Positions 16,421 to 37,132 of a stretch of 64,000 nucleotides of DNA are shown in pieces. This stretch comes from Austropuccinia psidii (lineage: Eukaryota > Basidiomycota > Pucciniomycetes > Pucciniales > Sphaerophragmiaceae): the NCBI GenBank assembly GCA_023105745.1, contig JALGQZ010000002.1, forward strand, positions 42,391,997-42,455,996. Direction: 5' to 3'. Made by a program: the position numbers and the translations under genes. Each line of letters opens with the position of its first letter. Positions within the stretch are counted from its first letter, which is position 1. The notes under the pieces were generated by a model. The model was not told the DNA's origin. It searched no databases and worked only from the letters and a program-made list of their open reading frames with translations.

Positions 16421-17353
16421 GGGCCTCTCTCCCTGTTTTTCCCCCCATGCTTCTGATTCAGACAATAATCTTGAGGATCAATCCATCCCTTCTCTAGTAG
16501 GATAATATAGTATTTATATTGAAAACGATCAGTAGCAAGGCTCAGTATCTTATAGTATTATTGATGATTAATTAATGAAAGATATTTATAATATTAATGA
16601 AAGAGTTTAATGTTATTTAAATAGTCTTACCATTATAGTAGTAGTGTTGAAGTAGGGTTGGAAGATATTATCAATAGTGATCTTATCTAATTTATCAATA
16701 ACCCTTATTTATAGAAGGGATATCATCTTACCCTTATACCTTATATCATAAGCCTTTTTAGGTATATTGGATTATATTTATATTGATCCTAATAGTATTA
16801 TATTACTATTATATCATTTATATCTTACCTTTATATTAAACAAAACCACCATTAAAGAATTATCTTACCCTTAAATTATTATAGCTATATTGATAGTATT
16901 ATTGAATCAACTTTAAAAGTATTAGCTAGCTATCAAGATTATTATTAATATTAATAGTGATCTTAAAAATATTCTTTAAATATCTCAGGTATTGAAAGAA
17001 GGAATACTAGAAGAATTAATTAAAAAGAATTATAATCAATAACAAGAAAGTTAAGCAACCCTAAATTATTAAAAAGAAATATTGACTATTACCATTATTA
17101 TCATAGTGATCTTTTATTGACAGACTGATAGAGACTGCTGAAGAAAATTCTCTAATTGAAAAGCCACACAACTAAATAATTGATTTGTGATCTCATCAAA
17201 AAGGGTATCTTTTTCAGTATATTTAGAGGGGCAGCTAATACACCTTAGCACCCATGGTTATTGGCTCATTCTGAAATTCAAAACAGACTCACCAATAATT
17301 TCCCCCTCAAGGTACTGCCTATTATTTATCCCACAACAAAAGGAGTTCCCACA

Positions 17354-17440
17354 GCGGGTGTGGGTGCGGGTGCATTGGCGTGTGTGGGTGCGGGTGCTCT
17401 TGCGTGTGCATTGGCGTGTGCGCATGCGGGTGCATAAGGG
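17354..17440 (+). repeat. GTGCGG minisatellite, right part
   Basis: Continuation of the array at 14918-14983 after the LTR-C insertion: GCGGGTGTGGGTGCGGGTGC, then GCGTGTGCATTGG words, followed by the conserved AAGGGCCGCTTCCCCTTCC that also follows the copy 2 array near 14050. Confidence 0.75.
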
Positions 17441-17693
17441 CCGCTTCCCCTTCCAACATGATGATGGCGCAGTTAGAAATTTTGGCTGCTGTGAAAGGTG
17501 AGTGTGTGGGTCATTTGATCATTGAACTTGGCTTATTCACACTGTACCCAATGTCAAAATAGTAAGTTCTTTGTGGCAATGTGAAATAATGGCCTTTGCT
17601 TGTCACAATGGCATGTCTCTGTCACTAAATTTTGAGGCAGTTATTTCACCAGCAAAATTTCTAATGAATCTGAGAGATTTGCATTTCTGTAGA

Positions 17694-20600
17694 CTAAATT
17701 TCATGAAATAACGGCTTTATCATTACAAGCAGTCCACATGACAGAACTTTGTCTCATACAATCCACAGTTACCTTCTATTTCTTCTTCAGATATAATCAA
17801 GATGCAGCCAATCTGGTAAGAAATTCACATCAATCTTCAAAGTTTTTAAGATCAGAAAGTTATTGTTCAGTATGCTAGATGGCTCAGAGACTTTAAAAAT
17901 GCTATTAATAATACCAAATCGGCGTGAGTTGCCCCTCAGAAAACATATCACACTGTTGCTGACATTTTTGGATTCAGTTGAAAATATATTGTTCCCAATA
18001 TTAATGTTTGAAACTGGAAAATACCAAGGTGAGACAATCCTTGAAGTGGGAGGACTTGTGGATTGCACGGTAGTGTCTAAGCTGATCCAATCAACTATTT
18101 CCATTGTTGCATGAAAATTCTGTAAGTACTCAACCAGGAAATCATAATTTTCTTGGTCATGGCAGGATGGTTTGTTATATTTATGGTCATTGAACAGGGC
18201 AGGTGACTGTGATTCGAAAAGCCATTTTATTTCACATGGCACGGATGGGGATTTCAGGAGAACGGAAAGGTTGGAACATCGACAGATATGTTGAAGTAAG
18301 GTTTTATCTATATCATCTATTCAGAGTTTCAAGAAGTTAATCTTATTCAGTTCAGGTGTTTAATCAATGTGAATATATTGATCTTATTAATTGATGTACA
18401 TATTTTGTTATTTTTTGGAATTTTTGCAAATACTCCAATCAAGTGCTCATAACCCCATGTGGCTGAGGCTTGTGCTGGGCCCCAACGTTGGAAGAGTTTG
18501 GGAATATGATCAGCAAAATGATCATTTGGTTTACTTTTCTGTTTTGGGAACAGGAGTTGATTGGAAAGGCGGAATTTTTCCAATGTTCAGCAAATGCAGT
18601 CGCATCATCTATTGAAACAGTCCAATGTGTGGCAATGTTGATAGCACTAATCAAATGGAATGTATTCTTGGTTAGTTCATTTGCAAGTTCTTCTGACTGA
18701 CCCATTTCTCTTTGAATGTTCGCGGATTGGTGTACATCTAATGACATCTGTTGACTGAGAATTAAAAATGGAATATAGACCTTATATAAGAGAGCCCATT
18801 CAGCGGCTTTTAAGCTACCATGAGAGGGGGAACCCATGCTGCGAGGTACTCTTGTCCATGATGAGGGAATTATCATCTCAGATATGATTTGTTGGAGATG
18901 CTCCAGAGCCTCACCCTTGATCTGGTGATCACTCAGTGCAGTGATATCCAATTCAGAGGGGATTTCAGAAGTGGGGATGTAATCGGCATCAAATGAAGGA
19001 ATCTCCGCAGAACCACTAGATGGATGTTCTGTGTGAGGGGTGGGCATTGGGAAGTAGTTTTTTTGGGTGGAAGTAGTGGGGAGTGGCTCATTTATTATTT
19101 TTGCTGCGTCTCTTCTCAGGGAGCGGGACTCTCTCAATGTGATTTTATCAAGAGAGCTGTTGAAGGTCATGGAATCTGAGTCTGAACTGTTGGTGTCATT
19201 GGATTTCCTGCGGGACCTGAGGTAAATTTTCGATTTGGACTCTGGAATGCACAATTTGAAAGCTGCATGATCCTTCAAAATTCCAAGTATTAAATTATGC
19301 ATTATGTCAAGATTAACCATTCTGGTTGCATCCCAATACCGAAGGTCTTCTAAAATTGAATATCACACTCCATACTGAGAGAAAATTGCTTGTCTTTGTT
19401 GTGGGGTTGCCCGAAGCCATTTGGCAATGGTTGATTTATGATTTTGATATGAGCGTGTGTAGTGAAATTGAGGACCAATTTCTTCAATTTGAGCTTTGTG
19501 AATGGTGCAAAAATTACAAAAGTGGTTGCCTCAATGGGAAATAAATCCAGTAAGCTTGTGCATGGCAGCCACATCCGCAATGGCTGTGAGAATGGCAACA
19601 CGGATAAAGGATCCTGAAGGACCTGTTGAGGTGGGTGAAAAATGGTAACCTTGCCATAGCTCTTTGAGCTCGTTGATGAGTGGAATTAATAAATAATTCA
19701 ATTGAAGGGAAGTTGGCTCCTTCGGACCAGGGATGATTCCTGCAACATAGACATTCTCTGGCTTCAATCTTTCACTTGGGGGGAGATTAAGACAAATAAG
19801 CAGGATAGGTCCAATGCTGGCCAACCGGGTGGACTTTCCATGTGCATTAAACCAATCCACATAAATGGAGAAGGCCAATGCACCAGGAATGGACATGAAT
19901 GGGGGGTCATGGATATTTCTAGTGCCAGTGAAGCGTCTCCAGACCAATTCATCCCAGACGTCACGTTTTGGGGAATCTTTGGGAGTTTGGGATTGTTGAT
20001 GTTGATGCAGAATGTCCATAATTCCAGCCCGCTGGAGAAATCTGGCAAGCCAATTTTTGAATGGTTGATAAATGAAATGTTTTGTTGGTATAAAGTTTTG
20101 CTTCATGTTGGTTGTGTTTTGGGTGTGGGCTTCAAATGAATAGATGAATTTGCCTAATGATTGTGTGCAAGGGGGATCATGATCATTTGGGTCATTATGG
20201 CTTTGACAGTGGGGTTGGTCAGTTGTGACTGATTCAATAAGGCCATTAAGAGAGAAACATTGAGGACAACATATATAGTTTTGAATCACTGGCTCCAATT
20301 GGAGATGTTCAAATATGGTACTCAGATCTTGAGGTATATGCAATGCAGGAATGGGGGGACCACCGGAGCTTGAGATGCTGGACTTGATCAGCAGGTTTAG
20401 GGCGGGGTTGAGAATGCATGAAGCCCTGCAGGGTATATTATACCTTAATGATAGAATGGCAGATATTATCATTCCAAGGTCTTGTGGAGGAAGGGTTTGA
20501 CTGCTGCTGTATGGTTTCTGTGCAATTGAATTGAGCCCCGGTGTTGTGGAGAAGGAGCTTTGGGTCAATGGTGAATAATCAGCTGGAAATATTTGATCCA

Positions 20601-20814
20601 ATAGAAGTTGTGGGCACTCAGATCCTGAGGCAGATGTAGGGATGTTTGGAAGAGATTTAGGTGCAATGGTTGATTTGAGCTTTTTAATGTGCTGTTTATA
20701 TTGGAAAGGTGTGAAGGCAACTCCAGGCCTATCACCCTCAGGGGAAGAGTGTGTTTGAGTTGAGCAGTGTTGACACATGCATATACGCATTGAGGAATAG
20801 CGGCGGGTTGTCAT
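17694..20814 (-). pseudogene. Tnp2/Plavaka-type transposase, copy 1 (frameshifted)
   Basis: The ATG at 20814 opens a long frame (MTTRRYSSMRI) with a Cys-rich CQHCSTQ segment. It then shows the Tnp2 hallmarks: YVDWFNAHGKSTRLASIGP, LICLNLPPSERLKPENV, IIPGPKEPTSLQLN, and after a TGA the NHFCNFCTIHK cysteines, then WDATRMVNLDIMHNLILG (the D-x-MHN box). The C-terminal half has HIPKLFQRWGP and GYEHLIGVF, matching the usual conserved block of Tnp2 proteins. Lesions: TGA after TGFISH (about 19530), a TGA replacing Arg near 19372, a 1-bp deletion near 18570 relative to copy 2, and a tail deletion near 17803. The family catalyses cut-and-paste transposition of CACTA-like elements. It is transcribed divergently from ORF2. 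Confidence 0.88.
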
Positions 20815-21775
20815 TGTTGCAGGAATTGGGAGTACGGTTGGTTTGTGTATAAATATCTATGGCTGATGTGAAAGTGTTTAGGAGTGTTATTAATTGGAAA
20901 AAAAATTGAGTGATTATTTATGAAGGGGGAGATGATTTGAGCCATCTGAGAATTTTATCCCATTTGTAATGGTGCGTGAGCTTCAGCTGATGGAGTGTAA
21001 CATGTCTCATCTGGATGGCGGAATTGGTTAGGAGTTTAATTGGGTAAAATGCCATGCTGCTCAATGCTCATACATATTCTATTTTATTTACACATGGCGA
21101 TACTGCGGTTTTGACCCTTGAGGGGTGTTCCAATAGGGATGTGTCAACATTGATTTGAGGGGATTGACATTCAAACCATGTACGCTGGCACACCATCGTA
21201 CATGGCTTAAACCTTATTACAGACATAACAATATAACTCTATTACATAAGGGGTTGGAGTGCAGCTAAAGTCTTGGTATTTGGTTTGAGTGCAGCAGGCT
21301 TTTAATCGGTTGGAATGTGATTTGGATTGTCTCTCCTTTCTTGAAAAGGTGATGTCTCTTTTGTGGGTAAATCCTTCATGAATATACCCCTTTACAGATG
21401 TACAATGCTGTGGAAGTTTAATGCATATATTGGCAGTTTGGATAATTCACAAAATGTGACAATGGGGAGGCAGAAATGTTACCAAATATGATTACCTATG
21501 GATGATGGGTCCCCTTTGAGATCAAGGAAATATTATATTATATGGTGGTAGGCCGTGCCGGGTGGTTTCCGATAAAAGCGGAGGAGCTCAAGAGGAGGCA
21601 GGGAGGATACTCCTAAAAAGAGGCTTATTGGACTTCCACGCAACACTTAGTTCCAACTATTCATAGAACTTCTCTATTCTAAATTTGAAAAGATTTCATC
21701 TCATATCACTCTATTTTATCATAATACTGAGTTGTTTTATCTAGTTAAAAATATTAGTGTACTTTTTTGGCCCTT
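20815..21775. other. Divergent intergenic region between Tnp2 and ORF2
   Basis: 961 bp without coding text, conserved in copy 2 (40045-41005). It contains palindrome P1 and AT-rich stretches. In copy 2 a CTTTTTCAG acceptor stands just before the ORF2 start; copy 1 has lost its AG (TTTTTTGG). It probably holds the promoters for both genes. Confidence 0.6.
21176..21205. promoter_or_regulatory. Palindrome P1 (repeated 26-bp motif, degenerate centre)
   Basis: CCATGTACG ... CGTACATGG, perfect 9-bp arms around a CTGGCA/CACCAT centre. It lies 362 bp upstream of the Tnp2 ATG and is conserved in copy 2 (P2, 40405-40436). Confidence 0.65.
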
Positions 21776-23831
21776 ATGTCATCTTCCAAGTCACATAAAT
21801 CCCGTTCAGGTTCTGTTCATGACTCAGATAGTGAATCTAGCATAGAATATGTTCAAACACAGTCACCATTGAGTCCCAACATTCCTCTCACAACCCCTAT
21901 CGCATCCTCAATGAATGTATCAGGTCTTAACAATGATGTGGGCAATCCAAAGGCTCCAACTTTAAGCACTTGGTCGATCCCAAATATTTCCGTCACTCCA
22001 ATTCCCCCAAATCCCACTAATACACAAATGCATGTGTCTCAGGGGCCAGAAGGCACACCTCAAATCTCATCACATGCTAATCCCCAATCAAAATTTCCAT
22101 GTGAGTTCCTCCTTAATCCCGGTCCGAATCCAGTCGCATCCCAGGATCCCTTTGGCCAAAGTAAACAGCCAACCCTCAATATTCCATCAGGATCTCAGGT
22201 TCATGTGGGGGATGAAAGGCGCGTGGATGGGGGGAAACAAAAAAGACCATTGGAGAATGTAACTTGGAGTGGTCTGTCGGAGGGAAATCCAGGATTGACG
22301 CTTCATCAAAGTAAGTCATTTTAATTTCGGAGTATAACATTTTTCACAATTTGATATTTTTGTTTCATGGGTTAGATATGGCACCTAAAGGCAAGTCAGT
22401 CCGATCTCAGGAGCCAATTGAAGATTGTGAGTATGACCAGTCTTCATTAATTTTTTGATGTGTTAACTGAGGATGTGCATGGCAGGTGATGAAATTTATG
22501 CATCTTCACCTCTGGTGCATAAAGAGAAAGTCACTGGATGTCATCATCCATATGCCTCCAAGCCAAGAACAGCTCATGCCAGTTCATCAAGAGAAAAATG
22601 GTGGATGATGAGGTTGAGAACATGTCTCCGACTCAAATGGAAACAAATGATGAATCAAGGAGGGACAATTTCACAGCGCATGAGCATGGCACTCAGTCAA
22701 ATAATGAGTTCACCCATCCTCAAATGGGCCTTGCCCAGAGTATGCTTGAACAATCCGAGGTCAGCAAAGGACCCAGGCTCGTAAAGCTCACAATGTGGCA
22801 AAACGTGCAAGCCAGAAGGAGCAACAAAAATGGCTGAAAGCAGAACTTCCAGAGAATTTCCATGGAATGAGATCAGCAGTACATGCCCATTGCCTGTTCC
22901 TACTCAAAGTTAGCGATAAGGATTTTTCCTCACTACCAGCACCACCCAACACAGAAGAGCATGAAATTGCAATTCAAGTGGCTGGTCATCTCGGATATGT
23001 CCCCAAGGATGTTTTCAATGAGCCATCAACACAGGTTCAGTCTCAGGGTTTCCAAAGGTACTGCGAAAATGAGCTCCACAAGCTAGGACTAAAGCGATTC
23101 ACTCGGGACTGGGAGAGCTCATGGCAACATCCGTTCAATGAGCTGATGTCTATGGTGTTTTACCGTACATTCCGTCTTGCACTGGTCAGCACCGAGTATC
23201 ATCATTACTGTTGGAACAAGGATCATAATAACTATGGGGTTGTGGCGGCTTTAATGGAGCGATATTTCACTTATTTGAAAAGAGAATGGAAGTCTATTCA
23301 AAAGAATGCCGAGTATTTGGTTAAAAAGAAGGAGAATCAAAAGCTCGCAAAGATTCGTCAAAGGGTTAGTTAATGTATCTCTTCTTCATTGTGAGCAAAG
23401 ACTGATGATGATCTACTTGATTATGTGCAGACCTGTAAGTGCTGTCGTGAATGGTGTGATACGGCTAATTTTCCCATTCTAGCATCACAATTCAATGACC
23501 CTTGAGTATGTTCAGATACTGGGAGGTACTGGAAAATGGCCGTCAAGTTTACCGCAAAGTGGAATTATGCTGGCGCTCCCAGTTATTTAATGAATTGGTA
23601 TTAAAAATGGATCGAGACATAGAGTTTTGTAATCGCATTAAAAAAAAGGGTAAAAAAACTATTGATAGATTGCCAGAATTATGATCAACAGATGATGGTG
23701 ATATTCCGGAAGGCTTATCATTTCAGGTATTTGATCAAGATTGGCTCAAAGGCTGTAGTAAGATGCAGACTAGCGCCCTCAAGATACTTGACATGCCAGT
23801 TATTAGGCCGAATGGTGATGCTCTGCAATAA
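21776..23831 (+). pseudogene. ORF2, spliced conserved element gene of unknown function, copy 1
   Basis: Start ATG at 21776 (MSSSKSHKSRSGS). Introns with good GT-AG borders at 22311-22375, 22427-22485 and 23365-23430. Joining exons 1 to 2 and 2 to 3 keeps frame (…MAPKGKSVRSQEPIEDC…). The amino part is Ser/Pro-rich and looks disordered. A basic KEQQKWLK stretch precedes a folded-looking region with GMRSAVHAHCLFLL, RFTRDWESSWQHPFNEL and EYHHYCWNKD. The last exon starts TCKCCREWCDTA and ends PVIRPNGDALQ. A 4-bp loss near 22765 and further frame changes make it a pseudogene. It is convergent with SNF2. I do not recognise the family. Copies 2 and 3 carry the same gene. Confidence 0.7.
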
Positions 23832-24049
23832 ATTAGTAAGATAAATGTATAGCACTGTTACAAATTAACATTTTGTGAATTATCTGTGCAGGTGTAATAC
23901 AATCTAATTATTATTTCTTAAAGATGCAACAACTTGCTAAATATGTCAGAATATAGACAATATGAATTGGAATGTATCACCGTCTCCCTTAGAAATAAGA
24001 CTCTATTGCTCATTTTCATTGAGGAAATATTGAAGGAGTTCGATCCAAC

Positions 24050-26569
24050 TCATGGTGTTCATAATTGTGGACCTATGCCAGGTTGAACAAGAGTTATCAA
24101 CTTGGTAAATCACAAATTATATAATATCAGTAAGGCTCACACAGTTAATGATTTTTTCTTTTCTTGGACCTATTGGTGTTTGGAAAATGGCATTTCCATA
24201 AGGAAGGATTTTAGAATAGCAATACAATTAGGGTCAAAGATGATCTTGAAAGGTACCTTCCGCATTTTGACCTCAACTGAATGAGGAATGATATAGTGGA
24301 TGACCTTTACAGGTTGTTGTTGGCCAATACGATGGAGTCGATCAACAGCCTGAGCCTCAATGGCTGGGTTCCAATTGGGCTCCTGGAAATGTGGATGTCA
24401 GGGGCCGCAAATCAGGGCAGAATTTTGGGGGTCCCCTCACCATTAAATAGACTGTATTAGCACAAGTTATATTGAGGCCAGTTCCAGCTGCGGCAATGGA
24501 TGCAATCAGTACTTCACATTCAGGATTATTGAAGAAATTCTCCAGTGCCTTCTCCTGTGCTCGTGCTGTAATTGTTCCATCAATTCGTGCTGAAAGGATA
24601 GAGTTATGGGCAAGTGCAATACCAATTCTACAATATGAAAAATTCAGATGGATTCAATTGGTAATGGATGCATATTAGAATTAACGCACAAATGTAGAAA
24701 TTGGGTCCATTGGGTATAAACCACCGATTTGGTTGGACCACACCTTGTTTGTTTGCTCTTCATTAAGCTTCGTAGGAGGTGTGCAATTTTACTACTCATC
24801 ATGCATGTTTCCACATCCACAATAGTTCGTGTGATTGTTGGCGAGTTATCCTGAGTGCTCCTGCCCTCGGGGTCTTCCAAATCCGCCTCGGCAATTGTGT
24901 TAAGCATGATGTGATGGTTAAAACATATTCGCAGCTTATTAATATTTCTGAAAAATTCTCCTGGTCCTTTGCTTTTGGATGATAGGAATTCTTCATATAA
25001 TATGGAATATTCTTGCTGCATGGTCGGGTTGAGTGGGAGCAGCTCATAATGATGGCTAATAGTGGGGAGGGATTCGAGATGTGTGGTTTTGGTGCGGCGC
25101 AAAGTTAAATGCCGCAATGCCAAATGCAAGATATCATTGCAACCTTTAGAAGGACTACTCAGGATGAATGGTGACCAGTTATCTTGATTGGCACTATGGG
25201 GTTGAGTGATGAATGATATTATGCCCAAAAGGTCATAAATGGTGTTGTGAACAGGTGTGCCCGTTAAACATATTCGACGGGATGAAAGGAGGCTATTAAT
25301 AGCACGGTGAGTGGCAGTGTATTGAGAGCGAATATAGCTATAAGATGGGGCAAGGGTTATTGGATATAAAAGGTAATTTGAATCATTTAAGATCAGACAC
25401 TCACTGTGCTTCATCCAAAATTATACGATGCCAATTGATTTGAAAAATGAATGATGTAGAGGTATTGGTTTGCTTAAATTCTTGGGTGATAGTATTGTAA
25501 GAAGTGATGATGATATCATATTTTAAGATGTCGTCTTTGGATAATGAGTGACGAGTGGGACCATGGTAGATTTTGGAATGCAGCGCTCCAGCCTGAGCAT
25601 GCTTGGATATTTCTGATTGCCAGTTGGTAATTAAGCGAGGGGGCAGATGATCATGGTGGGCGTGGAGCGATGGGGGTTTGCAATCATCCTCTCCTTGGAG
25701 GTACCAATTAGAGCATTGGCCTGAATGGTTTTACCTAATCCCATATCATCCGCGAGCAGTCCTCCAAGAGGGGTATTGGTTGAAAGGGATTGAAATGAGC
25801 TAACGACCTTGTTTGTAATGATGTGCCTGGCATTGAAAGTGGATCCTGGGGATGAGGTGGCCCAAAGGTTACGGGCTGATTGGCCATCGGGGATTTCTCA
25901 ATCCCAGAGAAAAGCTAGTCCGGTCTTTTGATGAGGGAGGAGGGGGGTTTGAATAATGGCATGGGGCGGGGTCATCATGGGGAGGTCTGATCCACTGGGT
26001 AATTGTATCAGTTTTTGCTTGGAAATCAATGATGAAACAGCAGGATATGAAACTGGTGTCGAGTTTGAAGCGGGAAATGTCAGAGTAAAAAGTTGACATT
26101 GACTATGAGTATTACAGTCATATTCTTTGGGAATTTTAAGCTTGAAATCTTGTGTTCAAAAGCTTTCCATTATGAATAAAATGTTTGGATACCATGTGAA
26201 GAACATCAATGCTAGATTGGTTTTCTGAGATGAGGAGGGATCATTTGCATCAGTCATAAATACTCCCTCAACAAATAATATTTGAGAAGGATTGGATTGG
26301 CAATTTTCAATCCATGCCCCACCAGGACCACAGTGCATGAAAACTTTTGGTGCCCCAAGGAATGGTATCAACGTTTTGGAAAGGGTTCCAGGTAGAGATC
26401 CAATAGCATGCTGGTGATTGGGGAGATAAACCAATATGTGGTGTGTATTGTGCCATATGATAAGCCAAGAAGCTAAGTGGGAATCCTCAGGATTTAAGGC
26501 TATATCACTATTTATTTGAATACAAATATTAATCATCCCAATGCAAAGTGGTTGTGAAGGGGTTGACAT
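24050..26569 (-). pseudogene. SNF2-family ATPase/helicase-like gene, copy 1 (stops and frameshift)
   Basis: The ATG at 26569 (MSTPSQPLCIGM) is conserved in copy 3. Motifs in order: PLLPHQKTGLAFLW, Walker A LLADDMGLGKTIQA, DEAH rebuilt across an intron (25338-25404: ILDEA plus HYIRS), ICLTGTPVHN, LRRTKT, then after introns at 24628-24689 and 24383-24440 the C-terminal lobe with AAGTGLNITCANTVYLM and QAVDRLHRIGQQQPVKV (motifs V and VI). This is the Snf2/Rad5-like class: ATP-driven DNA translocation, chromatin remodelling. No RING finger seen. Lesions: TGA near 26156, TGA (from CGA) near 25898, and a 1-bp loss in a C-run near 25640. The 3' end is approximate. Confidence 0.88.
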
Positions 26570-28698
26570 GATGGCTATTTTAAATTATTTGGGGCAGTTG
26601 GAAATTATATGATTGGGAGGGGTTAGCTAAACGGAATGAAGACAAATAGGCGCAGGTGGGGAACTTATATGAGAGGCAGCAATGGGGTCAAGGGGGGATG
26701 GCCTGTGGTTACGTGCATGGTCTTGATGGGGGTGGGCCTCTTGGGCTCATAATTTTCATATCCAATTTGGGGCATATATCAAGGAAAGGTGGCCAAAATG
26801 TGGGTGCACCGATATGACTTCTGGATCTGCAGCAAGGTACAAAACCTTTGGTGGAACAAGGTTGACATTAGCATATCCGAAATTGGGTGGGTTGTAGCAA
26901 CTTATTGTGGAGGGCATATTAGAGGCATGCAGTCATGTTCGCTGGTGTGACAACAAACAATGAGCGTATCCTCCCCAGGTTAATTGTTCACAGGGATCTA
27001 CTGGGCAATGTTCGCGGTTTAAAAGGGCAATCTCACTGTGGGGATGTTTGTGTGTGGGCGGGTGGGATATGTTTGGTGGCATGCCACCGAACATGACTTT
27101 GGTTTTGCGTGAGGTTTTTTTCTGACTGATGCCTACTGGGCTTCCAGGGGGGAATGTGTGGGATGATCAAAGGGGGCGCCAGCCGTGAGCCGTGATCCAC
27201 ATATACATTCACCCCTATTGCATTTGAGGCGATTACTAATCCACCGAGATTGGCATCCGGGTCTTTGCCTCACACGCGCACAAAACTCCGGCAAAAGAGG
27301 CCACCCACCCAAGGGAATTTTTGGCTGCAAGCCAGGTGCCACAACTTGCGCAGGGCGTGTGAGAACGTGAAGAAAATGACCTGCGGTGGGAGATACCCAT
27401 GCAAACATAGGCTGGGATTCTTCTAATGTGGATGAGGCTCAAGCAAATCCACACTGATTGGCCTCAGGTTTCCACGCGCAAGCAGGTGAGCGTCTGCAGT
27501 CAAGCTGACCACCCGACCAAGAAACTAGCCGGTCGGAACACTGGCAGTAAAATGTCTTCCAGGCGTGTGAAAGTTGCCTGTGTATGACCCGTTGGGGGGT
27601 GTGTATGAAAGCATGTGGCTTCCCGACAATGAGCACGCGCAATGGACAAGCAGGGCCAGTCATTGTTTTCCCCGACAATGGCACCAGATGGAAACCACTG
27701 TTTGTGTATGACCCAAATAAACAGTCATCCCACTATGACCCACTTACATTAACTTGGATTACATGCGCATCTGTGTCATAGTTAGGCAGAGCTGTCCAAC
27801 AAGGTGCATCAAAGGGATGCAGGTGAGAGATATGACTCGATGGCTTGACATGATTGCATGTTACATTGTTGAAAAGCTTTTGCTCTGCCCCGTAGAATAC
27901 ATTTACAAAGGTGTACTGTGTACTACAGTGTTGTCTGTACAGATTAGGAAGGTGTAATACTACTTGAGCCTGCATGCATATAGCAAATGTGCATGCACCT
28001 TCCGATCGTTTTCATATACGTAGCTCATGTGCCACATGCTCAGAATTGTGTTTCACCTGATTTGCACATGCAAGCTGAGCATGTCATGGTCAAATGCACC
28101 GTGTGGAAGTGCTCAGTAAAGCCATGGAATGAACTTTTTTTGCAATAGTTCATTGGAAGGCTCAGTTTGGAGCACTTCACCAAAGCATGTGAAATGCTGC
28201 ACCTGGCTGAAATGTCGTCCGATGCTGTGCCAAATGCTCAGATTGTGAGCATACAAAAACGACTGAGCAATGGCTCAGCACGGCGCATTTGATATTGTTA
28301 TATCAATTGTTCAATTAATGTGCAATTAAAATGTTCAACCACTGAGCATTTCAATTATGACCCGAAAGCAAACCTGAGCAATGGGTTGAGGCAAGCTCAC
28401 GCTGTATTCACTTGTCTTACAGCCCCCCCCTTTGTTCAAACAATATGACCAGGCCATACGGCCGGCAATCTCCCGGCGGTCACTTGTGACCAAATGCACC
28501 GGGTGGATTTCTGCATGGGTCACTTGTGCATTGCACCCACAATGCACATTCAACAAGGGCCTGACGACCACCCTCCTGGGTGATCGGGTGGCTATTAAAG
28601 GAAACAAAGGGGATTTGACTCAGCTTGACAATTCAATAAATTACAATACTCAGCCAGACCCCCATTGTTCTTCTGCCTCACACGAGCATTTTACTTCT
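26570..28698. other. Long intergenic region upstream of SNF2 and Zn2Cys6
   Basis: No credible gene. Short frames are not conserved in copy 3 (57821-60464), although the DNA itself is, in inverted orientation. It holds palindrome P3. The length and conservation suggest 5' flanks of two divergent genes. Confidence 0.6.
27069..27094. promoter_or_regulatory. Palindrome P3
   Basis: ATGTTTGGTGGCA / TGCCACCGAACAT: 26 bp, palindromic but for one central-flank pair (T versus G). It lies 500 bp upstream of the SNF2 ATG. The copy 3 counterpart is P8 (59961-59986). Confidence 0.75.
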
Positions 28699-28778
28699 CA
28701 GTTGCAGCATTCGCTGAGACTCAGCTTCAATTTTGCCCACACCCCTTGAAGCTGAGCCTTTTGCGAGTGCTGCAACTG
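28699..28778. promoter_or_regulatory. Promoter-proximal hairpin upstream of the Zn2Cys6 gene
   Basis: Arms of about 32 nt (CAGTTGCAGCATTCG ... CTCAGCTTCAA, and TTGAAGCTGAG ... TGCTGCAACTG) around a 15-nt loop, ending 27 bp before the TATA box. Copy 3 has a related inverted repeat in the same place (about 58250-58360). Confidence 0.65.
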
Positions 28779-28804
28779 CTGAGATCGTCTCAGCTTCACC
28801 ATGG

Positions 28805-28811
28805 TATAAAA
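28805..28811 (+). promoter_or_regulatory. TATA box of the Zn2Cys6 gene
   Basis: TATAAAA within CACCATGGTATAAAAGACC; copy 3 has CACCATTGTATAAAAGACA on its minus strand (58241-58247). It is about 430 bp before the ATG. The transcript probably contains a 5'UTR intron (29164-29234, TACTAAC branch site at 29206). Confidence 0.65.
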
Positions 28812-29234
28812 GACCATCTTCACACGACACGCCCTTCACTTTCTTTCTCACCCGCTCCACTTTGTTCAACCTCACCCGCGTTTGTCCTTCTTGTGCGTAT
28901 TCCCCTTGGTCTTCCTGCCTTTCTACTTTTGTCTTTTGCACTCCACTAAACCCACTCCCCTTCCTTTTGACTGTTTGTTTCTTCTGCTGATCCTTTCAGA
29001 ACCTCCCTTCTATCCACCTCATTTGTTACCTCTTTTTTTAACTTTTGTCAACATTATGTACCAATATTAATACTTATTTTTCTTCACAACTCTTTTCCAG
29101 ACTTTTAAAAACTTCGGACTAGAGCCTTCTTATTTTGTTTCCGTTTTAAATTTATAATTCATCGTACGTCTTCATTTTCTCTCTTGATTGTTTACTTTGT
29201 ATGCAGTTACTAACCTCAATTGTTTTGTTTTTAG

Positions 29235-30575
29235 ATGTCGTGCACTTTATGCACCAAGCGGGGTATCCCCTGCATTCATTCCTTGGCGACGAACGACGCT
29301 TGTGATGCTAGCCGACAAGCACACAAGAAATGTTTGTTTGTTGTCAGCCCCTTCCGACCACGAGGCCAGAGGAGTTCCCACCCAAGACGCCCTTGCGAGG
29401 ACTCCCTTGTGGTCAACGATGATGAAACCATTTCCAAGAGTGAATGGATTCCGGGCCCCCAAACAGGGAAATGGGAACGATTCCGGACGATTAGCCCTGT
29501 CCACTCCCCCTCCTAGGCCACCATCCGATGGTCACTTCACTCCTCGACCGGAGCAAAGTGATTATCCGGCCGATGAAGGATGGCGATGGCGAGAGGACAT
29601 TTGAGCTTGGGCTGATCATCACCATGTCTTGTTACCAATGGGATTCAAACGCCAAAGTAAGTTTTCTTTCTCCTCCTTATCTCATTTCTCTTCACACAAT
29701 AATACTGACTTTTTTCCATTACTCATAGAACAAAACCCCCCAAATCCCCCCCGACATGACTCTCCCGTTCCTAGTTTGCCTCGCAAGCAAACCCCCCGGC
29801 AACCCACTCCAGGCCCGAGTGGCACCCGATGGTCTGACGAATTATTCCGCGGTAAGCAGCCAAAGTTTCATTTCATTTTCACTTTCACTTTTGAGTTGAG
29901 TGAACTGACTCTTACTCCTTTTTTAGAACCCTCCCGAACCAAAGAGCCACCTATTCCTGGCCCAAGTCCATCGTCCCAACCACCTGAGGACGATACGACT
30001 CGTGAGCCAGAACCTGAGGTGGCTCCTACGCAATCCACTGAGGAACCTTTTGGTAAGTCACCCCTTCTTTCTCTTTGATCCATATCCACTTTTCCTCATT
30101 TTTTCTTCGACCGTCCCCAGATTGTCCCGCCACTCCTCGCTCAATAATCATCATCGACGATACGCCCGTCGGATCCCAACATCCCCCTCCCCCTCCCCCT
30201 TCTTCTTCACCGACTCCACCATCTTCCCCTCCTGTTCCCCCTCCCTCTACTCCTACCCCGGTTCCTTCCCAGGATCTCCCTCCCATTGCCCCCGAGAACC
30301 CAAGCTCCTCTCATTCCCACGAGGATGCTCGCAAGGAATTCACCGACCTGCGACCAACCCTAATGATTCCTCGAGCCATCGTCCACGAATCAATCAACCG
30401 AATCTTGTTGGAGCATTGCCGCTTGCTCCACATGATTCCTTTCATGGATGCAACTCATCGAAATGAGATGCACCAGGAATTCAGGGAGGAACTAAACTCC
30501 CTCCTTGCCCAGGCACTGGAGGCTTATCCAAAGGAGGACATCACTGGGACAGTCTCGAAATTCTTAGAAAAATAA
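29235..30575 (+). pseudogene. Gal4-type Zn2Cys6 protein gene, copy 1 (four exons, 20-bp frameshifting deletion)
   Basis: The ATG directly follows the acceptor TTTTTAG (5'UTR intron 29164-29234). Coding introns: 29657-29728, 29852-29926, 30053-30120, all GT-AG. Residues 3-33 follow C-x2-C-x6-C-x9-C-x2-C-x6-C, the binuclear zinc cluster spacing, but the fifth Cys is Ser in this copy; copy 3 keeps all six. Basic text (RPRGQRSSHPRRP) follows, then a long Pro/Ser-rich region and a C-terminal helical part ending ITGTVSKFLEK. Relative to copy 3, 20 bp between two GTCC repeats near 29500 are missing, which shifts the frame; adding 20 makes the summed exon length a multiple of three. Such proteins are fungal DNA-binding transcription regulators. 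AATAAA at 30632. Confidence 0.78.
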
Positions 30576-30984
30576 AAATTTAAAAAAATGTCATTATTTC
30601 CTCTTTTTATTATTTGTAATACTTTCTTTTGAATAAATTATTTGTCTTCAATTATTGTTATGTTCAATTTCTATTACATTCTTTGTTCACATAAAAATTA
30701 TTTATTTCCTCCTTAGAGAAAAACCCTGATTGCATGAGAATTATTTTTGTAAGTGCCCCACCAAGAGTTTGAGTGAGTATTTGTTTTTGTGAACCTCTTT
30801 TTCCCAAAATGCGCCAATAGTTGCCGTTACTGTCTCCTATATTTTCTTCTTCCATGGTTTAGAGCCATATCCATTCTTAACTGTAAAAAAGCAGGAGCTT
30901 CCCGCATGTGAGCAATCCACTCCAGATTTGTGAAACATGGCCTTTCCTATGGTCACACGCTATTAATCTTACTCATGTATTGAA
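30576..30984. other. 3' flank of the Zn2Cys6 gene
   Basis: AT-rich, with AATAAA at 30632-30637 as a polyadenylation signal. Conserved inverted in copy 3 (about 56260-56618). No gene seen. Confidence 0.5.
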
Positions 30985-31610
30985 TTGTTTAAATTGTCTG
31001 GAACCTTCACAAGCGTAAGGATTGGCGTGTGACTTGTCGGGAGGCTGCACAGGTGTAAGGATTGGCGTGTGAATTGTTGGGAGCCTGCACAGGCATAAGG
31101 ATTGGCGTGTGAATTGTCGGGAGCCTGCACAGGCGTAAGAATTTGTCAGCATTGTTGGCAACCTTCCCAAGCGTAAGGATTGGCGTGTGAATCGTCGGAA
31201 GCCTGTACAGGCATAAGGAATTTTTAGCATTTTTGGGACCCTTCACAAGCATAAGGATTGGCGTATGAATTGTTGGGAGCCTGCACAGGTGTAAGACCTG
31301 GCGTGTGAATTCTCGGGATCCTGCACAGGCCAAGAAATTTTCAGCATTGTGGGCAACCTTCACAATCGTAAGGATTGGCGTGTGAATCGTTGGAAGCCTG
31401 TACAGGCGTAAGGAATTTTTAGCATTTTTGGGAACCTTCACAAGCATCAGGATTAGTGTGTAAATTTTTGGGAGCCTGCAAAGGCGTAAGGATTGGCGTG
31501 TGTAGCGTCGGCACCCCGCATAGGCGCAAGGAACTCTTAGCATTGTCGGAACCTGCACAAGCATAAGGATTCGCGTGTGAAGCATTGGCATCCTGGACAA
31601 TAGCAACAAA
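30985..31610. repeat. 40-bp minisatellite next to palindrome P4
   Basis: About 15 units. The typical unit is GCGTAAGGATTGGCGTGTGA followed by ATTGTCGGGAGCCTGCACAG. Some units carry an AATTTTTAGCATTTTTGGGA variant in the middle. Copy 3 has the inverted array at 55766-56255. Frames across it translate to repetitive text and are not genes. Confidence 0.85.
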
Positions 31611-31619
31611 CCAGGACAG

Positions 31620-31645
31620 ATGTACGATGGCATGCCACCGTACAT
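31620..31645. promoter_or_regulatory. Palindrome P4
   Basis: ATGTACGATGGCA / TGCCACCGTACAT, perfect but for one pair (A opposite C). It lies between the minisatellite and the 3' end of the TET/JBP-like gene. The copy 3 counterpart is P7 (55740-55765). Confidence 0.8.
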
Positions 31646-31766
31646 AATCCACTTCACCCCTTTTTCATGTGAGACACCCCATCTCCCACACTCGACTCCA
31701 TCCAATCCTGGTGTATATTGTCCTCTGCCTTACCCAACACACATGCAAATCTCCTCATTCTTTGAA

Positions 31767-33496
31767 TCAGCATGAGATTGTATTACCATCCCTGATTTGA
31801 TAGCCCGCTCTCTCACCAATCTCATAATAGCCATGGCTTTTTTGCTGCATTGTTTTTGCTAACCTGCTTGAGCATTGTGCGGAAATACCCACTAGTGTCG
31901 TGCTTTCGTTGTCCTGTGCTGGATCAGTATAATGAACAAATGTACTACTGGCCCACACTACCTGAATGAGCTCATGACATGCGGATAGATCAATCCAAAA
32001 ATGCTCATTTGGGAAAATCAATTTTCCCCCTGTACACCGCTTTGAAGCATCTCTCTGAATTTGGCCGGTCCGCTTATCAGCTTGAAACCACCATCCCAAA
32101 GCATACAGCAATGCATCCTTATCAACATGAGGTGCGTTTTTGAATCCATTCATGGTGAAAGTGAGTGCGGAAGCGAACTCGAAGGCACCCTGATTTGCCG
32201 GAATATTGCCTTCATAGTTGACTTTATCAAAAGACGGAACCCCCTATGAATTGTAGAAATTTTGAATCTTCTCAAATAAATTATCCCCAACATATTGTAA
32301 GGATTGACCTAGAATGCAACCCACCAAGCTAAGATTGGCACCTTGGTTCTGCCATTCATCTTTTGCGTTTTCAATTTTCCCGACACTTCCATACAGACCA
32401 AATTGTTCATTCTTGGTGCTGCATTTGCGCAACCAAATCGCAAACATAAGTCCCTCCAGTAATGCTCCATTGGTTGCAATCGGGTCGGTGAATCTCTTTT
32501 CGCGAAATAAGAATTGTGATAATTCATCCCATTGATTGACCTTGACTTCCCTCATTGTTGTGAATGGTCGGAATTGGACAAGGGCAATGAGTAATCCGGT
32601 TGAAGAGAAAATTGCCACACGGCCAAAGTGAATGCGTTTGATCTGATTGACATCCACAACCCTCCAAATTTCACTTGGGGTGATATTTGCTGATACTGGC
32701 ATTGATATTTGTGCTGTTGGGCGAGAGGAGGAAAACAACCTATTCATTTGGGTTGTTTTGCGCTCATTTGTCTTTCGGGATCTGCTACTATTCCCGAGTG
32801 GTTGAGGGATCACTATGTGTTGAAGCACACAAGATATCAGATACTGCCAAGGAGCTTTCTTCGGCACACATCCTTTGACTTCCCTGTTGGAGCCCACATG
32901 ACATTGGCACAATCTGAACCGACTAAAGCCAATGTTCTTCTGTGGGGCCCAATGAGGGTGCCACATAAATGTGGAAGCATATATACACTGAGATTAAGCG
33001 AGCAACTCACAATTTCCTTCCTCAGCCCGACGCTTTCTCGCGAGTTCCCTTTTACGCTCTTTTCCTTTTTTTGTGAATTGTATGCTTTCAGCAGAAAATG
33101 AAATGAAACTGAATGATTACTGATTTATTAATATCACCTAAATTGAATTGCGGTTGATGAATCTTTTTTGATTGCGGCTAAAAAGAAAGATCACACCTGA
33201 CCTTGGCAAATTCGCAATCTCAAATACCTGAACCTGAAAATTGCAGTGGATAGTGCATTATTCAATTTTACACATTGATGTTCCCATGCAGTCACTTTCC
33301 AATCCAACCATTTGGAATATTGCAAGCACACGCAAATGCAATATGCATCCTGCTGCTGATCCCTAGCTATCCTAGTCCTCTTGAAAGACACAGGAACATT
33401 TGGCCTATTATGGGCTGGCGGGAAATGATAAACGCGACTTCCCGCAATGCCCCCGCGTGTGCTGCTCGCAGGCACAACACCTGACTCAGCTTGCAT
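31767..33496 (-). pseudogene. TET/JBP-like 2OG-Fe(II) dioxygenase gene (one in-frame stop)
   Basis: The best-supported part is 31767-32966. It includes TPSEIWRVVDVNQIKRIHFG, FREKRFTDPIATNGALLEG and, after an in-frame TAG at 32244, the catalytic core: FTMNGFKNAPHVDKDA (HxD iron ligands), YALGWWFQAD, GGKLIFPNEHFWIDL and STFVHYTDPAQ (distal His). I recognise this as the Tet-like 2OG-Fe(II) oxygenase family expanded in rusts and other basidiomycetes. TET/JBP enzymes oxidise methylated bases in DNA. A further exon probably lies at 33191-33496 (MQAESGVVPAS); a lysine/arginine-rich stretch near 33030-33070 would be between them, but I could not settle the splicing. A copy 3 fragment is at 55415-55599. 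Confidence 0.78.
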
Positions 33497-33517
33497 CTTG
33501 TCGGAGTCTCTGAAATG

Positions 33518-33543
33518 ATGTACGGAGGCATGCCGCCATACAA
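33518..33543. promoter_or_regulatory. Palindrome P5
   Basis: ATGTACGGAGGCA / TGCCGCCATACAA. The core GGCATGCC and most arm positions pair. It lies 22 bp upstream of the candidate first ATG of the TET/JBP-like gene and downstream of gene 6. Confidence 0.75.
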
Positions 33544-33660
33544 TTACTATTGGTACTCAGACTGTGGCATCCGGGCAGTAGTACGATAGGAAGTCATGAT
33601 TATTAAATTCATAAATCACTTTGCAAAATTAAATTACAATCTATCTAGTACAAAGCTAAT

Positions 33661-35891
33661 CTAAAACGGGTCAATCCTGGTTGTGAGTTTAGCTGACCTG
33701 GGTACCGTCAAGGTGACCTCATCACTTGAACCAAGACCGCGTTTCTCCACCCAGGCATCACCAAAGTCTAATACTAAGCATTGTGCAAATTCAAATCTAA
33801 GAGGTACAGTGGGGTTAAAAGACTCTGATAAGAAACTTTTATTCAGTAAATTACATATATACTTATTAGTACGTAGCCACACTGGCTCCACTAGATTTTT
33901 ACCCTCTGAAAGTTTTGCGGAAATGTCAATTAGTGATAAAGCCCCTTTAACTGAGCTTGTTCTCCAGTCATATGAGCATACCATCAAACCACGAACCCCC
34001 GCCGCAAAGACTGCCGCTAATATACCATAGCAAATTCGATTTATTCCAAGATTCTTGTGACACGCCAAAAGATCTTTGATGGCCTCATTTTTTTTTGAGT
34101 TCGTGAGTTTGCCTTTGATGCCATTAACTTTGACCTTTGTATGTGCATGTACCATGTTGTACGCAATCATCAAATGGATAACTGTATCAATTAGATCCTC
34201 CAGGTTCTTGTGCGGCTTTGTAGATATCTCATTGTCAGCCCCGCCACCTTCAATGCTGAGTTGGGTTTCACATTGCTTTGATTTACTCAAGCAGGAGGCA
34301 AGGTATTCAACTGCTCCCTGTTCGAGTCCAAGAGGATCGGTCGAATTTGATGTTGGTGCAACATATGGTTTGGGTGCAACCACATCGTATGAGACTAAAC
34401 TAATGGATTAAAACATAACATTTGCCCAAAAATGTTTAGCTGGATTGGCAGGGTAAAGAAGGCTCTGAACCATTTTGAAGAAGGAGTGTTCAGATTTTGG
34501 GAGATTCTCTGGAGGTTTAGCTGATTCCTTCATCAATTTGAGATTCCAAATGTTGTGATCAAAAAAGGCTTCTGTTTTGGTTGGCTTAAAACAATCTAAC
34601 CCTGTATATTGCAATTTATATCACCAGTCAAAAGCCAATAAACATGTATCATGCACAAAGATAAAACTCACCTGCCATCTCAAGGTCCTCCAGCCAGGCC
34701 AACATTTTAAGCTCTCGGTTACTGATCACCTTAATACCAACAGGCAGGAATGTATGAGCATCTTTTGTTGGTAAATTGTCCCATCGATTTTTGTAAATAC
34801 TATTGATATTATCAAGCCCCCTTTTCCATGATTGTTGAGTAATATTGGAATGATAATTCAAAATGCCTGCAAACTCTTCCATGCAGGATAAAAATATTCC
34901 TTGAAAAGTAGCAGACAATGACACTTCGGGCTCAGGGTCAGGAACTATATCAGTCATATCTCGTCCCATTGTATCATGTTTAATTGTTTCCCTTTCTTGA
35001 AAGGCTTGAATATTCCGAGAGGCGGGAGGGGTTGAATCATGCATTTTTTCATTCGGTATTGGGGGGCTTTCAGTATGTGGAGCTTCATCATGGATTGTTT
35101 CATTGAGTATTGGTGGGGGTTCAGTATGCGGAGGTTGATTATCAATATGGTCCCCTTCAACATTGATAATTTCATGACCTTGATCGCGAGAATCATTTGC
35201 GGCTTCAAAGGTACGGCGTTTTTTGTTTGTTTTTTTGGTCGCATGTATATTTGGTCTTTTTCCTAATCCTTTGCCTGGAAATCCAATGACGACTCGAGAT
35301 CCTTCAGGTAGAGATTCTTCCACCTCCACACCTGCCCATATATTGTAAGCAGCTATTTTTATCAACTTTGTTTTGAATTAGTAATGGACTTACGGTTCAA
35401 ATCCATTTTGAGCAGGCTCATGGCTTCAGCAATCTTTTGACGCACATAATCAGGAATTTTACTATCATTTTGGATTTTTTCGAGCCTTGGGATTGTTTGA
35501 GCAATGTTGGAGACAAATTGTTCCTTTCATATAATTTCCACCTCCCCACTGAAAATTACATCATCTTGCCCATCATCTTCTGTCGGTGCACAAGGTTCAA
35601 CAGTATTTTCCTTCTCATAAATTTTAAAATTCGGTTTCTGAGAGCTTGGAGGCTGACCTGAAATAAAGGCTATGACACAATATCAGGTTTTGGGAGATTA
35701 GAAATATTCAAGATGGATGCATACTCACATTCTGGAAGAACTGGTGGATCTTGATTATCTTCATGAGACTGGCTCTCTACTTCAATGCCTGATTCACGAC
35801 TACTGGCGATATCAGAGATTTCACTTCCACTCTCTGGGGCTGAAGTTGGTCGTTCATTGAATTCATGTGAATTTCCCAGGGTTTGGGCCAT
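33661..35891 (-). pseudogene. Gene 6: spliced gene of unknown function, right-most cargo of copy 1
   Basis: Start ATG at 35891 (MAQTLGNSHEFNER). Introns 35658-35728, 35332-35393 and 34602-34671 have GT-AG borders, and joins two and three keep coding text. The amino part is Ser/Glu-rich. Two copies of a 17-residue repeat follow (PHTEPPPILNETIHDE and PHTESPPIPNEKMHDS), after a basic KKTNKKRR that could be a nuclear signal. The carboxy part has HKNLEDLIDTVIHLMIAYNM, ICYGILAAVFAAGVRGLMVC and RFEFAQCLVLDFGDAW. An in-frame TGA near 35530 and a stop with a short gap near 34408 break it. Not recognised. Only one copy lies in this window. Confidence 0.6.
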
Positions 35892-36039
35892 AGTGGAGGT
35901 AGTTTATTAAGCAAATAGATTGTGACGAGTTGATTGATAACTTGTTTGAAGATTTTTGAATAAGAAGATCCAAATTGAAGGAAAAAGGTGCAAGTAAAAT
36001 AATTGCATTTGCAAAACGTGATTTGTCGGGAAATTGAAG

Positions 36040-36228
36040 GAGGAAATGTTTTGCAAATTATTTCATATCATGCAAATGAAATCACTTCCCTGTGAGACAT
36101 TGAATAAAGTTGACTAGTGAGAAACCTACTAAAGTCAACTTTTGAACTATTCAATGCTCATGAGGTAAGGACTAAGCAAAGTGTTCCATTTGAATGATAT
36201 GAAATAAAATGGTTTTGTTGGCGAAACA
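36040..36228. repeat. Long imperfect foldback upstream of gene 6
   Basis: Arms of roughly 85-95 bp around a 15-nt centre (36116-36130). Matching pieces: ATTTCATATCAT versus ATGATATGAAAT, ATTGAATA versus TATTCAAT, AGTTGACT versus AGTCAACT. It may be a promoter structure or a foldback MITE. Confidence 0.7.
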
Positions 36229-36390
36229 GGAGACACAATTCTTGTCTTAAATAGTCCACTTATTAGGTTTTAATTTGTGAGTCTCATGATTTAAACCCTA
36301 ACCACAACATTGTGAGTATACTGACCAATTTCCCCTTAGGTCCTGTTGGCAGAGAAGGCCACTCAGCATATTTTGGCGATTGCGTTCATC

Positions 36391-36416
36391 GTGTACACCA
36401 ACAAGCCACCGTACAC
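36391..36416. promoter_or_regulatory. Palindrome P6 (degenerate)
   Basis: GTGTACACCAACA / AGCCACCGTACAC. The outer six bases pair perfectly and GCCACCGTACA of the consensus is kept in the right half. It lies 500 bp upstream of the gene 6 ATG and directly before the 37-bp minisatellite. Confidence 0.6.
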
Positions 36417-36426
36417 TATGGCTGTA

Positions 36427-36765
36427 GGACGGAAGCGTAAGGATAAGTCGTGTCGGGAGCATGTTGAGAGGCACTCCGCGAGCGTAAGGATAAGTGGTGT
36501 CGGGAGCATGTCGGGAGGGCACCACACAAGTGTAAGGATAAGTGGTGTCGGGAGGGCACTACACAAGCGTAAGGATAAGTGGTGTCGGGAGGGCACTACA
36601 CAAGCGTAAGGATAAGTGGTGTCAGGAGCATGTCGGGAGTGCACTCCGCGAGCCTAATGATCGTAAGCAGTGTCAGGAGCATATTGGGAGGGCACTTGAG
36701 CGAGCGTAAGGATAAGTGATGCCGGGAGCATGTCGGGAGTGCACCATGTGAGCATAAAGATGGTA
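36427..36765. repeat. 37-bp minisatellite in the right subterminal region of copy 1
   Basis: Unit GCGTAAGGATAAGTGGTGTC followed by GGGAGGGCACTACACAA. Some units are longer by a GAGCATGTCGGGAG insert. The GCGTAAGGAT and GTCGGGAG words are shared with the 40-bp unit at 30985-31610, so the two arrays are related. Confidence 0.8.
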
Positions 36766-37086: not shown

Positions 37087-37132
37087 GATGTGAAGTCAAT
37101 CGCCAACGATTGATGCGAGATTTGCCCTGGTG
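37087..37132 (-). repeat. Right TIR of copy 1
   Basis: Minus-strand text from 37132: CACCAGGGCAAATCTCGC, then ATCAATCGTTGGCGATTGAC, then TTCACATC. It pairs with 14518-14562 and 13409-13454. The internal TCAATCG/CGATTGA hairpin is perfect here. Confidence 0.85.

What the first reader, a model, noticed from the sequence alone, without database searches (positions are those of the whole stretch)
17694..35891. Cargo set: transposase, SNF2 ATPase, Zn2Cys6 regulator, TET/JBP dioxygenase and two unknown genes on one transposon
TET/JBP enzymes act on methylated DNA and SNF2 proteins remodel chromatin. TET/JBP genes in basidiomycetes have been linked to KDZ-type transposons, but here the dioxygenase sits within TIRs of a Tnp2/Plavaka element beside an SNF2 ATPase. 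In trypanosomes JBP2 fuses the same two activities in one protein. The combination suggests an element that counters silencing of its own DNA. Modules from SNF2 to TET recur in copy 3, so the association is not a one-off.
Basis: partly seen in the sequence, partly recalled or inferred. Interest (0 to 1): 0.92.

Follow-up and report, generated by a model that had tools for sequence, protein, structure and literature searches.

The report
Jumping gene armed against DNA silencing
In what is most likely the myrtle rust fungus, a 20-23 kb DNA transposon found in many near-identical copies carries, beside its own transposase, a gene of the TET-like (DNA-methyl-oxidising) enzyme family and a SNF2-type chromatin-motor gene, a pair that would likely help the element escape silencing by DNA methylation.

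Summary
The gene content is real, but the boundaries are wrong. The element is 14518-37132 (22.6 kb), not 17694-35891. It ends 5'-CAC...GTG-3', has inverted repeats of about 40 bp and a 3-bp target duplication (ATT), and sits inside another copy of its family. Six full-length copies (window + 5 in the same 1.015-Gb genome, most likely Austropuccinia psidii) all have matching 3-bp duplications. By its ends it is EnSpm/CACTA, not Plavaka. The genes travel together: TET-seeded loci had SNF2 at the predicted place in 12 of 12, transposase-seeded loci in 8 of 9 (TET in 5 of 9), and overlapping hit lists gave only same-strand pairs. The frames are under constraint (pn/ps 0.45-0.66 against 0.74-1.38 off-frame), weakest for the transposase N half and the upstream gene. 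Copy 1 itself is decayed: a stop in TET, SNF2 broken, one zinc cysteine lost. Two 'unknown genes' share an intron and are one gene. C-to-T decay at CpG, above all TCG, marks the family, as expected of methylated DNA. TET+ EnSpm elements of rusts are published (Kojima 2025); SNF2 is not in that paper's main text. An anti-silencing role is likely but untested.

The parts
14518..37132 (.). Copy 1: whole element, 22,615 bp, CAC...GTG
14515..14517 (.). target-site duplication ATT, left
37133..37135 (.). target-site duplication ATT, right
14518..14560 (+). left terminal inverted repeat (about 40 bp)
   Evidence: alignment
37090..37132 (-). right terminal inverted repeat (about 40 bp)
   Evidence: alignment
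17790..20856 (-). Tnp2 transposase gene; intact domain frame 19534-20856, further pieces downstream (open frame of 830 aa or more in over 20 of 95 scored places elsewhere)
21758..23373 (+). conserved gene of unknown function, several exons, under constraint; a further exon piece follows in other copies
24330..26584 (-). SNF2 ATPase gene, broken in this copy by stops and frame changes; motif patterns I to VI present
29235..29513 (+). Zn2Cys6-like ORF, one Cys replaced by Ser in this copy
31770..32993 (-). Tet-like 2OG-Fe(II) dioxygenase, one in-frame stop near 32244 in this copy
33664..35377 (-). upstream gene with at least two exons (34652-35377, 33664-34407), same strand as TET; possibly its 5' exons
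13409..14517 (+). left part of copy 2, into which copy 1 inserted
37133..45361 (+). rest of copy 2 (transposase, plus gene, part of SNF2), cut by the LTR element
45362..55416 (+). LTR (Gypsy-type by its integrase and RNase H matches) retrotransposon without matching target duplication, joins copies 2 and 3
55417..64000 (-). copy 3, runs off the window; SNF2 to the last part of TET

Best explanation
This is an EnSpm/CACTA-type DNA transposon of 20-23 kb that carries, between CAC...GTG ends, a Tnp2 transposase together with a TET-like dioxygenase gene and a SNF2 ATPase gene, and these two are predicted to act together to keep the element's DNA unmethylated and accessible. Shown: ends, 3-bp duplications, recurrence of the gene set with fixed order and strand, constraint on the reading frames, helicase motif patterns, the HxD...H iron-site motif, and CpG-type decay of the family. 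Inferred: the dioxygenase oxidises 5-methylcytosine on the element, the SNF2 motor opens or slides nucleosomes so that the dioxygenase or transposase can reach it, and the Zn2Cys6-like protein may aim the complex. Proteins made from copies with open frames would act in trans on decayed copies such as copy 1.
For: Six full-length copies, 6 of 6 with matching 3-bp duplications. SNF2-seeded: 7 loci fetched of 147 scored; 5 of 7 have both ends inside the fetched stretch, TET in 6 of 7. TET-seeded: SNF2 in 12 of 12. Transposase-seeded: SNF2 at the predicted 150 bp in 8 of 9, TET at the predicted 200 bp in 5 of 9. List overlap: 25 same-strand TET-SNF2 pairs within 30 kb, 0 opposite, 20 at 7.6-9.4 kb (window included) against 0.03 expected. 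Codon constraint: SNF2 0.51 (0.40-0.68), TET 0.52 (0.38-0.74). 123 of 150 scored TET rows have no stop in the 249 residues compared (the window's own row counts among the 123 although its frame stops right after). C-to-T at 4.2-11.8% of CpG sites against 0.2-1.3% at other C; TCG 8.7-21.4%. A. psidii methylates young TEs at CpG (PMC12774611, passages).
Against: No enzyme activity, expression or methylation was measured. The family still decays at CpG, so any protection is incomplete. In the copies aligned, TET is free of stops in only 4 of 7 and SNF2 is broken or has a stop in several; no copy was shown to have every gene open. TET and off-frame pn/ps are not far apart (0.52 against 0.77 and 0.85, with an upper bound of 0.74). 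The three genes may be separately selected. Structure models were too poor to test the fold (pLDDT 34 and 39), and the TET profile matched no solved structure. Pfam PF12851 (Tet_JBP) was not among the matches. Copies lacking cargo were not looked for by their ends, as that search did not complete.
Confidence: 0.6

Rival explanations
1. TET and SNF2 are passengers: ancestral captures copied along because the element tolerates large size, with no role in the element's spread.
For: Copy 1 and some other copies have broken TET or SNF2 yet persist; rust TET genes move between transposon types (PMC12730594).
Against: Reading frames are conserved against off-frame controls, 123 of 150 scored TET rows show no stop in the compared stretch, and order and strand are fixed.
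Confidence: 0.15
2. The SNF2 motor serves transposition itself (clearing nucleosomes or transposase-DNA complexes, gap repair), while TET alone counters methylation; the two are neighbours without a joint task.
For: Among solved structures the SNF2 exon-2 piece is nearest to yeast Rad5, a repair protein (8.4e-10).
Against: The N-terminal piece is no nearer to Rad5 (1.8e-10) than to other SNF2 proteins (a 'helicase-like protein' 5.8e-12, a snf2/rad54-family helicase 8.9e-12), so the subfamily is open.
Confidence: 0.2
3. The dioxygenase acts genome-wide in trans, changing the host's methylome, and the benefit to its own element is incidental.
For: PMC12730594 discusses non-targeted oxidation in mushrooms (discussion, part read); this genome has other TET families too.
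Against: The linked Zn2Cys6-like and SNF2 genes would be natural targeting partners, though this is inference.
Confidence: 0.15
4. Plavaka element rather than EnSpm.
For: PF18759 Plavaka at 26.1 bits against a cut-off of 26.3.
Against: Ends CAC...GTG with 3-bp duplications in 6 of 6; PlavakaB ends CATCA...TGATG and PlavakaA TGT...ACA per PMC12730594; PF02992 well above its cut-off.
Confidence: 0.08

Closest known systems
TET+ EnSpm transposons of rust fungi (Kojima 2025, PMC12730594)
   Same: CAC...GTG ends, 3-bp duplications, Tnp2/Plavaka-like transposase, TET gene, rust host; A. psidii is named among species with related EnSpm families (section read)
   Different: SNF2, Zn2Cys6-like and plus-strand genes are not mentioned in what I read; 'SNF2' has 0 occurrences in the main text; the supplement could not be opened
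KDZ (Kyakuja-Dileera-Zisupton) TET transposons
   Same: TET gene as cargo in basidiomycetes
   Different: different transposase and 7-8 bp duplications (PMC12730594); here PF02992 and 3 bp
DNMT5 of basidiomycetes (PMC13297926, passages)
   Same: a SNF2 motor, there related to Rad8 proteins, teamed with an enzyme acting on DNA methylation
   Different: a host protein fusing SNF2 to the methylating enzyme; here the motor gene stands beside the predicted eraser, on a transposon
Trypanosome JBP2 (recalled)
   Same: pairs a TET/JBP dioxygenase with a SNF2 ATPase
   Different: one fused host protein; here two separate genes of a transposon
Arabidopsis VANDAL VANC anti-silencing proteins (PMC10398659, abstract in search listing)
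   Same: transposon-encoded countering of epigenetic silencing
   Different: sequence-specific binding protein; here predicted dioxygenase plus ATPase
Maize Spm TnpA (recalled)
   Same: CACTA element with an activity that reverses its own methylation
   Different: DNA-binding protein, no dioxygenase or SNF2

Membership tests
EnSpm/CACTA | termini 5'-CAC...GTG-3' | tested here: met
   6 of 6 full-length copies
EnSpm/CACTA | 3-bp target-site duplication | tested here: met
   ATT, AAA, ATT, AAT, ATA, TCT in 6 of 6
EnSpm/CACTA | Tnp2-type transposase (PF02992) | tested here: met
   2.8e-13 copy 1, 3.5e-15 C8 copy
EnSpm/CACTA | DDE with C(2)C and H(3-4)H motifs, tree position | not tested
   no reference alignment at hand
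Plavaka | PF18759 above cut-off | tested here: inconclusive
   26.1 bits against 26.3
Plavaka | termini CATCA...TGATG (B) or TGT...ACA (A) | tested here: not met
   CACCAGGGC-type ends; definition from PMC12730594
Tet-like 2OG-Fe(II) oxygenase (PF20515) | PF20515 above cut-off | tested here: met
   1.7e-44 C13 copy; 9.4e-11 and 6.3e-23 on copy 1 pieces
Tet-like 2OG-Fe(II) oxygenase (PF20515) | HxD...H iron-binding motif | tested here: met
   HVD in 6 of 7 copies with the region, HVN in C3; later H in 7 of 7 (motif assigned by eye)
Tet_JBP (PF12851) | match to PF12851 | tested here: not met
   not listed at E up to 0.1
TET/JBP dioxygenase | oxidation of 5-methylcytosine | not testable with these tools
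   needs an enzyme assay
SNF2 ATPase | SNF2-rel domain plus Helicase_C | tested here: met
   PF00176 2.8e-31 (C8), PF00271 4.9e-7 (copy 1)
SNF2 ATPase | motifs I to VI | tested here: met
   all six patterns in 4 of 8 copies (1, C8, C13, C10); one pattern missing in C7 (II) and in C14, C3, C4 (VI) (patterns and motif names recalled)
Rad5/16 subfamily | best similarity to Rad5 over both halves | tested here: inconclusive
   exon-2 piece Rad5 first, N piece not
Zn2Cys6 cluster | C-x2-C-x6-C-x9-C-x2-C-x6-C | tested here: met
   7 of 8 copies; copy 1 lacks one Cys
Zn2Cys6 cluster | PF00172 above cut-off | tested here: not met
   13.9 bits against 21 on C8, nothing on copy 1; so only called Zn2Cys6-like
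KDZ | 7-8 bp duplications, KDZ transposase | tested here: not met
   3 bp, PF02992

The most novel reading that the evidence does not exclude
A selfish anti-silencing kit, the mirror image of the host's SNF2-methylase DNMT5: a CACTA transposon that encodes its own DNA-demethylating dioxygenase, its own chromatin motor and a DNA-binding partner, and thereby outran host methylation to reach thousands of copies, perhaps a tenth of a gigabase genome.
Probability: 0.35. Interest if true: 0.86.

Novelty: new variant of a known kind. Interest (0 to 1): 0.63.

Why it matters
Hosts silence transposons by methylating and packing their DNA. An element that carries both a predicted eraser of the mark and a motor for the packing would be a natural test of whether both layers must be defeated together, and might help explain how one rust fungus reached a gigabase genome. 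The family offers many young copies with open and with broken frames in one assembly, so existing long-read methylation data could test it directly.

Tried and rejected
Boundaries 17694-35891: no convincing inverted repeat. Plavaka filing: termini do not fit. Zn2Cys6 by Pfam: below cut-off. AlphaFold models of TET (A1) and of the upstream gene (A2): pLDDT 34 and 39, so no fold search was made. TET profile against PDB: no match up to E 10. CDC24-calponin match of the upstream gene: 21.1 bits against a cut-off of 21.3, and 18.1 in another copy, not used. Melibiase, Malic_M and MIC19 matches: below cut-off, not used. One 17.8-kb DNA query of the genome scored only 3 places. End-repeat-seeded genome search: not completed, so cargo-less elements were not counted. 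Iyer 2014 is not held; its content is recalled only. No other rust genome could be searched, and the protein searches listed only A. psidii names (plus a few unnamed entries) among their best 120. A review of fungal methylation holding both words, SNF2 and TET, was checked by passages: its SNF2 passages shown concern DNMT5, and it calls transposon TETs functionally uncharacterised (PMC13297926).
Full report
WHERE IT IS. The window lies in a 1.015-Gb assembly of 84 contigs. The best 120 listed relatives (of 354) of its TET piece all bear the name Austropuccinia psidii MF-1, the first 88% identical over 96%; with the genome size this makes the myrtle rust, or a very close kin, the likely host.

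THE ELEMENT. Comparing copies inside the window shows two junctions: 14518, where CAC... starts after ATT, and 37132, where ...GTG ends before ATT. Their inverted repeats agree over about 40 bp apart from scattered changes. Left and right of this insertion lie two parts of a second copy of the same family (13409-14517 and 37133 onward), so copy 1 jumped into copy 2. An LTR element (45362-55416, LTRs 92.6% identical; integrase and RNase H domains) then joins copy 2 to an inverted copy 3. Its two flanks show no matching duplication, so a rearrangement between two such insertions is likely.

OTHER COPIES. The SNF2 exon gave 5008 first-look candidates in the genome, of which 147 were scored, all at least 93% identical. 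Seven loci, picked by eye down the list, were fetched. Five have both ends within the fetched stretch (C8, C13, C7, C14, C10; 20.3-21.1 kb) and two (C3, C4) only the left end. With copy 1 that makes six full-length copies, and 6 of 6 have matching 3-bp duplications: ATT, AAA, ATT, AAT, ATA, TCT. Copies are 93-98% identical to each other. TET sequence is present in 6 of 7 fetched loci; C4 leaves the family before reaching it.

TESTS FROM OTHER SEEDS. (a) From the 150 PF20515 rows, 12 TET places whose profile match starts at 3 were picked by eye, leaving out three already seen next to SNF2; the stretch 6.9-8.4 kb downstream held SNF2 on the same strand at 93-97% identity in 12 of 12. The 30 best rows (L001-L030) are other TET groups and were not examined for SNF2. 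(c) Overlap of the scored lists: TET to SNF2, 25 same-strand pairs within 30 kb and 0 opposite, 20 of them at 7.6-9.4 kb (window included) against 0.03 expected by chance. SNF2 to transposase 11 and 0; TET to transposase 19 and 0. These lists are top slices of thousands of candidates, so they are lower bounds, and 'thousands of copies' is not shown. No search started from the end repeats was answered, so the share of cargo-less copies is unknown.

GENES. Transposase: PF02992; open frames of 830 aa or more in over 20 of 95 scored places (my count); PF18759 Plavaka just misses its cut-off, as Kojima describes similarity to Plavaka for rust EnSpm. SNF2: PF00176 2.8e-31 in the C8 copy, Helicase_C on copy 1, and motif patterns I to VI (DDMGLGKT, DEAQ, TGTP, VVYxQW, GTGLN, HRIGQ): all six in 4 of 8 copies, one missing in each of the other four (motif names recalled). 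Nearest solved structure of the exon-2 piece is Rad5; of the N piece, a helicase-like protein and a snf2/rad54-family helicase. So the subfamily is open. TET-like: PF20515 1.7e-44 in the C13 copy; HVD...H in 6 of 7 copies, HVN in C3. Frame free of stops in 4 of 7 aligned copies (C13, C7, C14, C3), with stops in copy 1, C8 and C10. A plus-strand gene of unknown function is well conserved. The Zn2Cys6-like ORF has the full spacing in 7 of 8 copies but not in copy 1. The two unknown ORFs at 33664-35377 are joined by a ~70-bp GTGAGT...ACAG intron seen whole in C13, C7, C8 and C10, with one side found in copy 1 and C14. Five database gene models (P0027, P0318, P0265, P0267, P0269) run from this gene toward or into the TET frame, so it may be the 5' part of the TET gene. 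That is a prediction of gene finders, not shown.

CONSTRAINT AND DECAY. Over eight copies pn/ps in frame was 0.45 (transposase C part), 0.66 (N part, interval 0.45-0.99), 0.45 (plus gene), 0.51 (SNF2), 0.53 (zinc ORFs), 0.52 (TET) and 0.57 (upstream gene, interval 0.41-0.94), against 0.74-1.38 in shifted frames. The N part of the transposase and the upstream gene are therefore weak cases. SNF2 exon 2 alone is 0.31 against 1.13 and 1.63. The intervals are codon bootstraps over all pairs of copies, which are not independent. Singletons over six full-length copies: C-to-T at 4.2-11.8% of CpG sites against 0.2-1.3% of other C, and 8.7-21.4% at TCG. TCG is the site that PMC12730594 names for hypermutation in repeats of Pucciniomycotina (discussion, part read), and A. 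psidii is reported to methylate young TEs at CpG (PMC12774611 and PMC8063080; passages read). Copy 1 is the most decayed at CpG of the six.

MECHANISM. Most likely the element makes its own eraser and its own chromatin motor: the dioxygenase oxidises 5mC on element DNA, SNF2 clears nucleosomes, transposase then acts. Only anatomy, linkage, constraint and decay are shown; activity, targeting and joint action are inferred. The host side offers a mirror: basidiomycete DNMT5 fuses a Rad8-related SNF2 motor to a methylase (PMC13297926, passages). The persistence of CpG decay shows that protection, if any, is partial.

NOVELTY. TET+ EnSpm elements in rusts and the escape idea are published (Kojima 2025; abstract, text parts 2 and 3 of 7, first part of the discussion, legends and passages read). 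'SNF2' does not occur in that main text. The literature searches made showed, by titles and the starts of abstracts, no paper on a transposon pairing SNF2 with TET; the one review holding both words was checked by passages. The supplement and Repbase could not be checked. Hence: new variant of a known kind.

Noticed in passing
window 5850-13408: large imperfect palindrome (arms up to 89% alike, centre near 9630) whose right arm ends where copy 2 begins (13409)
   Followed up: partly
window 15545-16355: tandem array of ~138-bp units in the left part of copy 1; the region between about 14.97 and 17.36 kb has no match in the C8, C13 and C4 copies compared with copy 1
   Followed up: partly
window 30992-31590 and 36423-36761: minisatellites inside the element, also matched in other copies in several registers
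   Followed up: no
L001-L030: the 30 best PF20515 places of the genome form other TET groups (clusters of 17, 12 and 1 loci), only 24-28% identical to this family's TET; whether they too sit beside SNF2 was not looked at
   Followed up: partly
window 482-1825 and 45362-55416: retroelement domains (integrase, RNase H); the second element has no matching target duplication and links an element copy to an inverted one
   Followed up: partly
several TET-SNF2 and TET-transposase pairs lie about 10 kb farther apart than usual, as if a ~10-kb insertion sat between them
   Followed up: no
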